Positions 1,763 to 35,517 of a stretch of 64,000 bases of DNA are shown here, piece by piece (the first letter of the stretch is position 1; every line of letters begins with the position of its first letter). This DNA comes from Geodermatophilus sp. TF02-6 (GTDB lineage: Bacteria; Actinomycetota; Actinomycetes; Mycobacteriales; Geodermatophilaceae). Below the pieces are notes generated by a model. The model worked only from the letters and a program-made list of their open reading frames with translations. It ran no database searches and had not been told where the DNA came from. The stretch is from assembly GCF_003319115.1 (NCBI RefSeq), contig NZ_QOHF01000010.1, positions 98,887 to 162,886 of the forward strand, in the 5' to 3' direction. Both the position numbers and the translations under genes were made by a program.

Positions 1763-2884
1763 GTGATCCTCGACTCGCTCGACGTCGCGCCGGAGCGGTT
1801 CGCCGCCGGCACCGGCTGGCAGATCAAGCCGGAGGGCGCCTGTCGCGCCGAGGTCTGCGTGCCGCTGGGTACACCGGGCGGCTTCGACCTGGTCGCCACC
1901 GCTGAGCGGCTGCGGATGGCGCTGGTCCGCGACGAGGCGGCCGGGCTGTGGGCGCTCGGCCCGGCGACGCTCGGTGACCGGGCGCTGACCAGCGCCGAGG
2001 CGCCGGAGCTGGTCCTCGACGACATCGACGGCACCGAGTTCCGGCTCTCCTCGCTGCGCGGCCAGAAGGTGCTGCTGGTCGCCTGGGCGCCCTACTAGGG
2101 CTGCGCCTTCGACCTGCCCGGGTGGCAGGAGCTGCGCGCCGAGCTGCACCCCCGCGGGCTGGAGGTGGTCACCGTGTCGCTGGAGCTGTCCGGCCCGGAG
2201 GTCTCGCGGCCCCACGTCGAGGCGGCCCGCCCCGAGCACCCGTCGCTGCTGGACCCGACCCACCGCGTGGACGCCCTCTTCGGCGTGGTCAACGTCCCGA
2301 GCGTCGTGTGGATCGACGAGGACGGCGTCGTCGTGCGCCCGCCCGAGCCGGGGTGGCCCCGCTCCCGCGAGGGGCTGCCCCCCGGGATGGCCGAGACGAT
2401 CCCCGCGGTCGGGCCGGCCCCGAACGCACCCCCGCCGCCGGAGGGGGCGCTGGAGCAGGGCGCCGTCCTGAACACCGGGCAGCACCGGGGCACCTACGCC
2501 GACGCCGTCCGCGACTGGGTGGCCCGCGGCGCCGAGAGCACGTACGCGCTGAGCCCGGCCGAGGTCGTGGCCCGGTCGCGACCCCGGTCGACGGCGGCGT
2601 CGGAGGCCGCGGCGCACGTCGAGCTGGCCGACCACCTGTGGCGGACCGGCCGGCGCGACCTGGCGATCGCGCACTTCCGCGCGAGCCACCGGCTGCAGCC
2701 GGACAACTGGACCTACAAGCGGCAGGCGTGGTCGCTGGTCAGCAACGAGCGGGTCGGTGGCCCGATCGGTCGGTTCGTGCAGGGCCCGGTGGCGGGCGAG
2801 GAGGCCGACTGGCCGTTCGACTCGGACTTCCGCTCCGACCTCGCCCAGCTCGGCGAGGGCGAGTACTACCCGAAGACCCTCTGA
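1763..2884 (+). CDS. ResA/thioredoxin-like redoxin, candidate selenoprotein with UAG-encoded Sec
   Basis: A single 373-residue reading frame from GTG 1763 to TGA 2882-2884, interrupted only by TAG at 2096-2098 (codon 112). The residues around it read W-A-P-Y-[TAG]-G-C-A-F-D-L-P-G-W, the W-A-x-x-U-G-C arrangement of ResA-like redoxins, with TAG in place of the catalytic Sec or Cys. The part after the TAG carries on the thioredoxin fold (V-V-T-V-S-L-E, then V-N-V-P-S-V-V-W-I-D-E-D-G with the cis-proline region) and ends in a helical tail. No usable start codon with a ribosome site lies just after the TAG. A SECIS-like hairpin follows at 2113-2129. The role would be thiol/selenol redox chemistry; no signal peptide is seen, so it is probably cytoplasmic. 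The alternative is a pseudogene with a nonsense mutation, made unlikely by the second such case at 34089. Confidence 0.85.
2096..2098 (+). other. In-frame TAG read as selenocysteine (recoded codon)
   Basis: TAG occupies the first redox position of the W-A-x-x-U-G-C motif, two residues before Cys114. Reverting it to a Cys codon would need two base changes, so a simple recent nonsense mutation of Cys is less likely than recoding. Confidence 0.8.
2113..2129 (+). promoter_or_regulatory. Candidate bacterial SECIS hairpin for UAG codon
   Basis: CCTGCC (2113-2118) pairs perfectly with GGCAGG (2124-2129) around the loop CGGGT. The stem starts 14 nt after the TAG and the loop 20 nt after it. The published bSECIS description asks for a short stem, a small apical loop with G in the first two positions, and 16-37 nt from the recoded codon to the loop; this hairpin fits all three. 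Confidence 0.7.
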
Positions 2885-31397: not shown

Positions 31398-31601
31398 GTG
31401 GCCATGACCCTCCGCCTCGACGAGCAGGAGACCGAAGCGCTGCGCCGCAGGGCTGAGCTGGAAGGCCGGTCGATGCAGGAGGTCGCTCGGCAGGCGATCC
31501 GGGACTACGTCGAGCGGACCAGCAGACGTGAGTTGCTGGACCGCGTGCTAGACGAGGAACTGCCGCGCTATGCCGAGGCCCTGGAGCGGCTTGGCCGGTG
31601 A
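31398..31601 (+). CDS. RHH antitoxin of Doc module
   Basis: A 67-residue protein. The N-terminal M-T-L-R-L-D-E-Q-E-T-E-A-L is a ribbon-helix-helix strand/helix start and the acidic C-terminal half should bind the toxin. The start may be GTG 31398 or ATG 31404. No ribosome site is present and a -10-like TACCAT lies just upstream, so the mRNA is probably leaderless. Its stop overlaps the toxin start (GTGA). Confidence 0.8.
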   Translation: MAMTLRLDEQETEALRRRAELEGRSMQEVARQAIRDYVERTSRRELLDRVLDEELPRYAEALERLGR

Positions 31602-31975
31602 TCCACCTCGACCTGGACGACCTCCTGCACGTCGCCAGGCGGACGCTCGGTGAGGTCCAGGTGCGTGACATCGGTCTCTTGGAATCCGCGGTCGCCAGAC
31701 CCCGAGCCACGGCGTTCGGGGAGGACGCCTACCGGTCCATCCACGACAAGGCGGCGGCGCTGCTGCACTCGCTCGCCCGCAACCACGGGCTGGCCGACGG
31801 CAACAAGAGGCTCTCGCTGGCCGCGACGATCGCGTTCTACGGCGTCAACGGGTACCGGCTGACCTTGACGAACGATGAGGCCTACGACCTCATCGTGGCG
31901 GTCGCCTCCGGGCAACTCGACGACGCGGAGTCGATCGCCGGACGCCTGCGGTCGAGCACGACCCCCTGGCCGTGA
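31598..31975 (+). CDS. Doc/Fic-family toxin
   Basis: A 125-residue protein with the Doc active-site motif H63-G-L-A-D67-G-N-K70-R71. Doc proteins phosphorylate and inactivate elongation factor Tu; classical Fic proteins AMPylate. The short length and lack of an inhibitory helix fit Doc. It is paired with an RHH antitoxin rather than Phd. Confidence 0.88.
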   Translation: MIHLDLDDLLHVARRTLGEVQVRDIGLLESAVARPRATAFGEDAYRSIHDKAAALLHSLARNHGLADGNKRLSLAATIAFYGVNGYRLTLTNDEAYDLIVAVASGQLDDAESIAGRLRSSTTPWP

Positions 31976-33574: not shown

Positions 33575-33806
33575 GGACGGCGACCGGCGCCGGCCGCCCC
33601 TGGGACCGGTCCGGTCACCGCCCCGGGGGCACGGCGGACCCGGGTTCGTCTTCCGTCCCCCGGAGGACGGCCTGGTCGCACGGGGCCGCCGCTCCTAGCG
33701 TGGCCCGCGAGCCCCTGCCGGCGGAGGACGGGACGCAGGATCCCGGGCGCCGCGGCAGCCGGCGGCAGGCCGATCGATCGACGACGGCGGACCGAGGAGG
33801 TCGGTG

Positions 33807-34337
33807 ATGGCGGTGTTCGAGATGGTGGACCCGACGGTGCAGCCGGAGGGCGCGGCGGTGGGGCTGGCCGACCGTCCCGCGGACCTGCGGGGCCGGCGGC
33901 TGGTGCTGATGGACAACGGCAAGCACAACGCGCGGCAGCTGTTGGAGGCGGTCTGCACCATCCTGGAGCCGGAGCTGGCGCCGTCGGAGGTGCTCTGGCG
34001 CAGCGTGCCGACGACGTTGCCGGCCGCCGAGGGGCTGCTCGACGAGATCGCCGCCGAGTGCGACCTGGTCATCGAAGCGGTCGGCGATTAGGGCTCCTGC
34101 AGCGCGGCCAGTGTGGCCGACGTCATCCTGATGGAGCAGCGCGGCGTCCCCTCCGCGGCCATCTGCACCGACGCGCTCCGGCCGAGCGCCGACGCGATGG
34201 CGCGGATCCAGGGCGCCCCGGGATACCGGTTCGCCGTCGTCCCGCACCCGGTGAGCAGTCTCGACGCCGAGGGCGTCCAGGAGCACGCGCGTCTGGCCGC
34301 TCCCCAGGTGCTCGAGATCCTGCAGGGCGGCACGTGA
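33807..34337 (+). CDS. UGSC family selenoprotein with UAG-encoded Sec
   Basis: One 176-residue frame from ATG 33807 (6 nt after AGGAGG) to TGA 34335-34337, with an in-frame TAG at codon 95 (34089-34091). The residues read I-E-A-V-G-D-[TAG]-G-S-C-S-A-A-S-V, so the TAG falls on the U of the U-G-S-C motif that names the family. The downstream part (D-V-I-L-M-E-Q-R-G-V-P-S-A-A-I-C-T-D, then V-V-P-H-P-V-S-S-L) is fully protein-like and lacks its own start and ribosome site. A SECIS-like hairpin follows at 34105-34119. The biochemical reaction of UGSC proteins is not established. The conserved partner gene lies 55 nt downstream. A Cys version would be D-C-G-S-C, a redox pair; here U95 and C98 would form it. 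Confidence 0.88.
34089..34091 (+). other. In-frame TAG read as selenocysteine (UGSC motif)
   Basis: TAG at exactly the Sec position of D-U-G-S-C, three residues before Cys98. It is the second such case in this window. Confidence 0.82.
34105..34119 (+). promoter_or_regulatory. Candidate bacterial SECIS hairpin for UAG codon
   Basis: CGGCC (34105-34109) pairs with GGCCG (34115-34119) around the loop AGTGT. The stem starts 13 nt after the TAG and the loop 18 nt after it. Stem position, loop size and the G at loop position 2 match the hairpin in the redoxin gene. Confidence 0.65.
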
Positions 34338-34392: not shown

Positions 34393-35517
34393 GTGACGGA
34401 GCAGGAGGACAAGACCTCCTACAGCCCGACCTCGTACAGCCCGGAGGACCTGCTCCTCGCCATCGAGGAGTGCTTCGACCGGGGGTGGACCGACGGGCTG
34501 CCCGTGGTGCCGCCGATCCCGAGCCTGGTGCGCCGGTTCCTCGAGCACACCGACCGCTCGCCGTCCGAGGTCGTGTGGCGGATGAGCCAGGTCAAACGCG
34601 GCTGCACCGTCGAGGCCGCCGCGGTCAACGCCGCGATGGCCGGCTGCCGGCCCGAGTACCTCCCGGTGGTGCTGGCCGCGCTGGAGGCGGTCGTCGACGA
34701 GGGCTGGCCCGGGCACGGCGGGTGGCAGAGCACCACCGGCGGTGGCCCGCTGCTCGTGGTCAACGGGCCGGTGCGCGCCGAGCTGGGCTTCAACGCCGAA
34801 GGCAACGTCTTCGGCCCCGGGTTCCGGGCGAACGCGACGGTGGGCCGGGCCGTCCGGCTGGTCGTCCTGAACGCGTACGGGATCCGGCCGCACGAGCTGG
34901 ACCAGTCCACCCAGGGGTTCCCCGGCAAGTACAGCCTGTGCATCGCGGAGAACGAGGAGGACAGCCCCTGGGAGCCGCTGCACGTCGAGCTGGGGCACGC
35001 GGCCGACGTCAGCACGGTGTCGGCGGTGCACACGCGCAGCACCGAGCACGTCGACAACCGCAACACCGGTGACGCCCGGGCGGTCCTCAACGACATCGCC
35101 GACACCGTGGCGCGGATCGGGCCGATGACCCGGCGGTACCGGCGGGTCGTGGTCGTCGTCGGTCCGGAGCACGCGCAGCAGCTGGCCGGTTCCGGGTTCT
35201 CCAAGCAGGACCTCAAGGAGTACCTGGTCGAGCACAGCAGCCGGACGGCGGGGGTGCTGCGCGCGGCCGGCCGGGCCGAGGCGACCGAGCTCTACCCCAG
35301 CCGGCAGGAGTCGGCGGGGGTCTTCGCCAGCACGACCGCGGCACCGGCGGAGGGGGGGCTCGCGTCGATCCCCGACGACGAGCCGGTCACGGTGCTGCGG
35401 TCGCCGGACGACGTCGTGGTCGTGGTGGCCGGGGCCGCCAATGCCGGGGTGACGACGGTGCTGCACACCCTCGGCTTCCCGCCGAAGACCCCGGGCAACG
35501 CGGTGGTCCGCCGCTGA
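34393..35517 (+). CDS. UGSC-associated conserved protein
   Basis: A 374-residue protein from GTG 34393, after GAGGAGCCGACGTC, on the same strand 55 nt behind the selenoprotein gene. I do not recognise a catalytic domain. Conserved-looking parts are D-G-L-P-V-V-P-P, two cysteines in R-G-C71-T-V-E-A-A-A-V-N-A-A-M-A-G-C85, and the Gly-rich S-T-T-G-G-G-P-L-L-V-V-N-G-P. The C-terminal 70 residues form an alpha/beta unit with P-D-D-V-V-V-V-V-A-G-A-A-N-A-G. The gene order suggests it works with the UGSC protein, perhaps as the larger subunit or as a redox partner through C71/C85. Confidence 0.7.
   Translation: MTEQEDKTSYSPTSYSPEDLLLAIEECFDRGWTDGLPVVPPIPSLVRRFLEHTDRSPSEVVWRMSQVKRGCTVEAAAVNAAMAGCRPEYLPVVLAALEAVVDEGWPGHGGWQSTTGGGPLLVVNGPVRAELGFNAEGNVFGPGFRANATVGRAVRLVVLNAYGIRPHELDQSTQGFPGKYSLCIAENEEDSPWEPLHVELGHAADVSTVSAVHTRSTEHVDNRNTGDARAVLNDIADTVARIGPMTRRYRRVVVVVGPEHAQQLAGSGFSKQDLKEYLVEHSSRTAGVLRAAGRAEATELYPSRQESAGVFASTTAAPAEGGLASIPDDEPVTVLRSPDDVVVVVAGAANAGVTTVLHTLGFPPKTPGNAVVRR

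What the first reader, a model, noticed from the sequence alone, without database searches (positions are those of the whole stretch)
33807..34337. UAG-encoded selenocysteine in a UGSC family protein
An independent gene has TAG at the U of the D-U-G-S-C signature. Two unrelated selenoprotein families sharing TAG at the exact Sec site within 32 kb is very unlikely by chance mutation. The function of UGSC proteins is not established, so this locus is also of biochemical interest.
Basis: partly seen in the sequence, partly recalled or inferred. Interest (0 to 1): 0.93.

Follow-up and report, generated by a model that had tools for sequence, protein, structure and literature searches.

The report
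UAG-coded selenocysteine in a UGSC enzyme
In this actinobacterial gene the stop codon UAG sits exactly where relatives carry the selenocysteine codon UGA or a cysteine, and the cell likely reads it as selenocysteine with a matching tRNA found in the same genome; the code change is already in print for this bacterial family, while the predicted enzyme role of this gene and its near-constant neighbour gene is still untested.

Summary
The 176-codon ORF 33807-34337 has one TAG, at codon 95, the U of D-U-G-S-C, and matches Pfam UGSC across it. The genome has a tRNA-Sec with anticodon CUA plus selA, selB, selD and four more genes with an in-frame TAG at a Sec-type site: a second UGSC, two formate-dehydrogenase-like genes, one redoxin. 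In the bacterial family 72 of 95 UGSC hits have TAG there, none TGA. Of 90 outside loci read, none has TAG: they have TGA or Cys. A hairpin 14-28 nt after the codon pairs fully in 71 of 71 TAG genes tested, 20 of 22 TGA genes and 6 of 92 Cys genes. UAG = Sec is well supported but not new: PMC5330540 reports it, citing Mukai 2016, for Geodermatophilaceae, UGSC proteins included. Found here: TAG lies on at least four separate UGSC branches, UGSC nearly always travels with one 374-aa partner, and its profile resembles the GrdB/PrdB selenoprotein domain.

The parts
33807..34337 (+). UGSC-family selenoprotein gene, 176 codons with TAG read as Sec
34089..34091 (+). TAG codon 95 at the Sec position of D-U-G-S-C
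   Evidence: codon census
34105..34119 (+). Predicted SECIS hairpin: stem CGGCC / GGCCG, loop AGTGT, nt +14 to +28 after the TAG
   Evidence: all five pairs in 71 of 71 TAG genes tested, 20 of 22 TGA genes, 6 of 92 Cys genes
33795..33800 (+). AGGAGG, likely ribosome-binding site of the UGSC gene
   Evidence: Read
34393..35517 (+). Partner gene, 374 aa, no Pfam or NCBIfam match; near-constant neighbour of UGSC, in three database proteins fused to its C-terminal part
   Evidence: (no family)
1766..2884 (+). AhpC/TSA-type redoxin gene with TAG at 2096-2098 (PYUGCAF), second TAG selenoprotein candidate of the window; start codon not fixed

Best explanation
This is a UGSC-family gene whose codon 95, at the selenocysteine position of the family, is TAG, and the cell is predicted to read that UAG as selenocysteine with the CUA-anticodon tRNA-Sec that its genome encodes. 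SelA and SelD would make Sec-tRNA(CUA); SelB would bring it to the ribosome where the UAG is followed by a hairpin at +14 to +28 (loop AGUNU), while UAG elsewhere would still end translation through release factor 1. The change of code would have needed only the anticodon and the codons: the hairpin is the same in UAG and nearly all UGA genes. The gene lies upstream of a 374-aa partner gene; the two likely form one enzyme. From the weak profile similarity to GrdB/PrdB I infer that Sec95 attacks a small organic substrate held by the partner and that Cys98 (U-x-x-C) resolves the selenide adduct (inference, about 0.4; substrate unknown). Shown: codon, tRNA, sel genes, hairpin conservation, synteny. 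Inferred: Sec in the protein, and the chemistry.
For: Family match across TAG. tRNA-Sec by Rfam RF01852, 65.3 bits, cut-off 47, anticodon CTA. selD beside it (TIGR00476 E 1.1e-113), selA (TIGR00474 E 1.3e-125) and selB (TIGR00475 270.5 bits, cut-off 242.25) on the same contig. In-frame TAG at Sec-type sites of five genes in three unrelated families of this genome. 72 of 95 UGSC hits in the family have TAG, none TGA; none of the 48 genomes with a TAG-UGSC lacks a CUA tRNA-Sec, and the two UCA-only genomes that hold UGSC have no stop in it. Outside the family: no TAG in 34 order-level hits (15 with one TGA, 19 without a stop); codons read in 18 of these (6 TGA, 12 Cys) and in 72 named-genome loci (73 rows: 16 TGA, 57 Cys). 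Hairpin: 71 of 71 TAG, 20 of 22 TGA, 6 of 92 Cys; AGU at +19 in 71, 20 and 0 of these, although AGT is 3 of 143 Ser codons in five window ORFs. TAG on at least four separate branches. No PylS above cut-off (best 24 bits of 178.15).
Against: No protein data. RF1 is present (487 bits) and TAG ends 3 of 27 predicted window genes, so termination competes. Whole-segment folding energy does not show the hairpin: z 0.16 against dinucleotide shuffles, and against synonymous shuffles the mean z is -0.71 for TAG, -0.09 for TGA and -0.33 for Cys genes. The Cys genes differ from the Sec genes in the amino acids of the hairpin region too, so the hairpin contrast is partly a protein difference. The two formate dehydrogenase hits are below the TIGR01591 cut-off (best piece 177.6 of 666.25 bits); that their TAG site is the known FDH Sec site is recalled. 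The GrdB/PrdB link is a profile match of 80.6% at best and 25-36% against each subset; Pfam's GRDB model itself does not hit UGSC at E 0.001.
Confidence: 0.92

Rival explanations
1. The UAG is read as pyrrolysine. ARAGORN indeed names the CUA tRNA 'tRNA-Pyl'.
For: ARAGORN label; the anticodon is CTA.
Against: The same tRNA matches Rfam tRNA-Sec over its full length; no PylS above cut-off in the genome (24 of 178.15 bits, while one of 14 control genomes passes); relatives have UGA or Cys at the site.
Confidence: 0.01
2. The gene is a broken or truncated UGSC: the TAG is a true stop and only a 94-residue fragment is made.
For: RF1 is present, TAG is still used as a terminator, and databases hold UGSC entries of 96-108 aa that cover about half of the query, two of them named Modestobacter roseus.
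Against: 72 hits in 48 genomes keep TAG at one codon with a family match running on behind it; the hairpin is conserved; the downstream half keeps coding composition.
Confidence: 0.04
3. UAG is read by another amino acid (ordinary suppressor) or is a sense codon genome-wide.
For: None found beyond the open frame.
Against: The CUA tRNA met is of tRNA-Sec type (the other tRNAs of the genome were not listed); 3 of 27 predicted window genes end in TAG; RF1 present; the census shows TAG, TGA and Cys at this column.
Confidence: 0.02
4. UGSC is a thioredoxin-like redox protein rather than a GrdB/PrdB-like catalytic subunit; [quoted passage not shown]
For: The U-x-x-C motif and the passage in PMC2398784.
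Confidence: 0.25

Closest known systems
UAG-coded selenocysteine of Geodermatophilaceae (Mukai et al. 2016, as described in PMC5330540 section 17)
   Same: tRNA-Sec with anticodon CUA, and TAG in formate-dehydrogenase-like, UGSC and AhpC-type genes.
   Different: Same system; this is another genome. Added here: a census over 112 genomes, a split inside the GTDB family between CUA and UCA genera, and at least four separate TAG branches in UGSC. The original paper was not readable here, so I cannot say which of these it already holds.
UGSC family, Pfam PF24696 / NCBIfam NF041046
   Same: Full-length match above both cut-offs, D-U-G-S-C motif.
   Different: Sec codon TAG instead of TGA; copies elsewhere use TGA, TGC or TGT.
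GrdB/PrdB, selenoprotein B of glycine, sarcosine, betaine and D-proline reductases (PF07355)
   Same: Profile alignment puts Sec on Sec, with a shared E-x-x-G-I/V-P stretch behind it; 80.6% probability, E 1.3e-5 for one comparison.
   Different: Out of reach of the Pfam GRDB model; only a C-terminal part aligns; the partner is not GRDB-like (0.18%) and no pyruvoyl subunit was looked for.
Aeromonas salmonicida with UGU as Sec codon (passage in PMC10778597)
   Same: Sec moved to another codon with a matching tRNA-Sec anticodon.
   Different: A Cys codon there, the stop codon UAG here.

Membership tests
UGSC family (PF24696 / NF041046) | Full-length profile match above the curated cut-off | tested here: met
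   182.6 bits (cut-off 25) and 143.5 bits (cut-off 125)
UGSC family (PF24696 / NF041046) | U/C-G-S-C motif at the conserved column | tested here: met
   TAG-GSC at codons 95-98
UAG-Sec recoding system | tRNA-Sec with CUA anticodon in the genome | tested here: met
   RF01852 65.3 bits, anticodon CTA
UAG-Sec recoding system | selA, selB, selD present | tested here: met
UAG-Sec recoding system | TAG at Sec-type sites of several families | tested here: met
   UGSC x2 (census-backed), formate-dehydrogenase-like x2 and redoxin x1 (site recalled or by reading)
UAG-Sec recoding system | Conserved hairpin directly after the codon (bacterial SECIS position) | tested here: met
   Conserved pairing; energy tests of the whole segment were uninformative; SelB binding not testable here
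UAG-Sec recoding system | Selenium present at residue 95 of the protein | not testable with these tools
   Needs protein
GrdB/PrdB (PF07355) | Match to the Pfam GRDB model | tested here: not met
   hmmscan at E 0.001 gave PF24696 alone
GrdB/PrdB (PF07355) | Homologous C-terminal domain with Sec at the same place | tested here: inconclusive
   hhalign 80.6% (all GRDB), 35.6% and 24.8% (subsets), reversed controls 0.08-0.23%
GrdB/PrdB (PF07355) | Pyruvoyl partner subunit (GrdE/PrdA) | not tested
   Partner has no family match; no comparison with GrdE/PrdA was run
Thioredoxin-like fold proteins | Thioredoxin fold | tested here: inconclusive
   Predicted model resembles Rossmann/flavodoxin-type folds; an unlisted fold is not excluded
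Pyrrolysine system | PylS synthetase | tested here: not met
   Best 24 bits against cut-off 178.15

The most novel reading that the evidence does not exclude
UGSC and its partner form a widespread two-subunit selenoenzyme, a GrdB/PrdB-like class that cleaves a small organic substrate reductively and works in aerobic actinobacteria; and in Geodermatophilaceae the host's altered tRNA-Sec forced at least four separate UGSC lineages to swap UGA for UAG while keeping the same SECIS hairpin.
Probability: 0.4. Interest if true: 0.72.

Novelty: new member of a known kind. Interest (0 to 1): 0.45.

Why it matters
A stop codon that means selenocysteine in one bacterial family is a natural experiment in changing the genetic code. 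Here it can be watched gene by gene: the codon follows the host's tRNA anticodon while the recoding hairpin stays. Databases hold short UGSC entries of 96-108 aa that cover about half of the protein, so selenoproteins of this family are likely missed by automatic annotation. The reviews seen give UGSC no function (passages); the partner gene and the GrdB/PrdB resemblance give a testable idea of what it does.

Tried and rejected

Coverage: order level, codons read in 18 of 34 outside-family hits (for the other 16 only its stop column). Named-genome scan: best 80 of 218 confirmed stretches, 79 loci, found with a pattern set that includes a Cys form, so its TGA share is likely a lower bound; 7 of the 79 are Geodermatophilaceae records and overlap the family set. 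Hairpin test: 71 of the 72 TAG hits (L367 came later), and 92 of 99 Cys rows; the rest lack an exact G-S-C or fell together under one key; without those 7 overlapping loci, 5 of 85 Cys rows pair fully. Tree: 183 rows thinned to 116 at 85% identity within a label. One search stopped with an index error and was rerun.

Full report
Observation. The ORF 33807-34337 (+) has 176 codons and one in-frame TAG, codon 95, in the context EAVGD-TAG-GSCSAAS. Read through, it is a full-length UGSC protein (PF24696, E 9e-54; NF041046, 143.5 bits against 125). Third-position GC is 0.90 before and 0.94 after the TAG.

Genome. The window lies in a 4.7-Mb genome held in 53 contigs. That genome has a tRNA-Sec by Rfam (65.3 bits) with anticodon CTA, which ARAGORN labels tRNA-Pyl; a second hit just above the Rfam cut-off (48.7 bits) is read by ARAGORN as tRNA-Ser. 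Next to the tRNA-Sec lies selD, and about 2 kb away selA and selB. PylS is absent above cut-off and RF1 is present. Genus: contigs of sister genomes G055 and G053 have the same lengths as named Geodermatophilus sabuli and G. ruber records, so the genus is inferred to be Geodermatophilus.

Other TAG genes in the genome. A second UGSC (G000:C4) has one TAG and a third (C34) has Cys. Two formate-dehydrogenase-like genes (TIGR01591 pieces of 177.6 and 171.2 bits, below the cut-off of 666.25) have TAG in ARI-TAG-HSSTVPGLGTSFGRG; that this is the FDH Sec site is recalled. The window's redoxin has TAG in PY-TAG-GCAF, shared by the three relatives found at 70-76% identity. Five genes of three unrelated families thus have TAG at a Sec-type site.

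Census. In 112 genomes of the family the UGSC profile gave 95 hits in 54 genomes. At the Sec column 72 have TAG, 22 Cys, and one remote hit, without a stop, does not keep the motif; none has TGA. tRNA-Sec was found in 108 of the 112 genomes; all 110 hits were read: 102 CUA, 8 UCA. Seven UCA genes belong to genera g5, g6 and g7; the eighth is a second copy in G058. None of the 48 genomes with a TAG-UGSC is UCA-only or without a tRNA-Sec hit; the two UCA-only genomes with UGSC have no stop in it. Outside the family, the 34 hits of the order-level search have one TGA (15) or no stop (19), never TAG; codons read in 18 of them are 6 TGA and 12 Cys. The named-genome scan gave 79 loci, 72 of them outside the family, with 73 rows: 16 TGA, 53 TGC, 4 TGT, no TAG. 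Its two nearest relatives, at 70-71% identity, have TGA.

Tree. On a tree of 116 UGSC rows with the Sec column masked, TAG needs five changes, at least four of them forced by starred branches. It is a quick tree with several long branches. The window's gene sits with three other TAG rows (SH-aLRT 98) inside a group with the TGA genes L237 and L238 (99). The tree cannot show direction; UGA to UAG is inferred from the spread of UGA outside.

Hairpin. At +14 to +28 after the codon all five pairs form in 71 of 71 TAG genes and 20 of 22 TGA genes, with three main stem sequences in the TAG set that change on both sides, and loop AGUGU, AGUCU or AGUUU in all of these; 6 of 92 Cys rows pair fully and none has AGU at +19. 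Sliding the partner strand by 1-3 nt drops pairing among distinct TAG sequences from 1.0 to 0.22-0.53. AGT is 3 of 143 Ser codons in five window ORFs, two of these in UGSC itself. Against this, segment energies did not exceed shuffles, and Cys genes also differ in the encoded residues here. Only 22 of the 71 TAG segments are distinct over 36 nt, and relatedness was not corrected for. The formate-dehydrogenase-like genes have a GGUCU loop at the same spacing by my reading.

Literature. PMC5330540 section 17 (read whole) says that its reference 56, Mukai et al. 2016, described tRNA-Sec CUA and that FDH and UGSC selenoproteins were reported there, and adds AhpC of Blastococcus saxobsidens with a Sec-TAG codon. 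The original is not held. PMC8124441 and PMC10778597 mention the codon change in passages seen. In the listings (titles and abstract starts) I saw no paper that links UGSC with GrdB/PrdB; the papers were not read whole, and most subscription papers are not held.

Verdict. UAG = Sec here: very likely, and a new member of a published kind. The enzyme hypothesis is open.

Noticed in passing
L041:1173-1263 (-), contig G058:C17: Genome G058, same genus, has besides its CUA tRNA-Sec a second tRNA-Sec with anticodon UCA (81.8 bits) on a 69-kb contig whose start carries genes that look transposase-like by my reading; no selB and no clear TGA selenoprotein found on that contig. Contamination, a mobile remnant or a dual code were not told apart.
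   Followed up: partly
L042-L047, L050: The tRNA-Sec genes found in genera g5, g6 and g7 of the same GTDB family have anticodon UCA, which suggests that the anticodon change happened inside the family.
   Followed up: partly
window 1766-2884: AhpC/TSA-type protein with TAG in PYUGCAF, a weak TPR-like match in its C-terminal part, and a hairpin with loop CGGGU after the TAG; relatives with TAG in G031, G034, G077.
   Followed up: partly
G000:C7:131747-134593 and G000:C1:3108-5957: Two formate-dehydrogenase-like genes with TAG in ARIUHSSTVPGLG.
   Followed up: partly
window 31398-31975: Small gene pair that looks like a toxin-antitoxin module (CopG-like antitoxin, Doc/Fic-like protein with a DGNKR motif; recalled resemblance, no family search run).
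   Followed up: no
L001:1501-1596: ARAGORN names the CUA tRNA-Sec 'tRNA-Pyl', and databases hold UGSC entries of 96-108 aa: automatic annotation likely misses this code.
   Followed up: no
L250, L257: Two Solirubrobacterales TGA-UGSC genes lack the AGUNU loop; by my reading they have another GC-rich hairpin with a GGU loop nearby.
   Followed up: no
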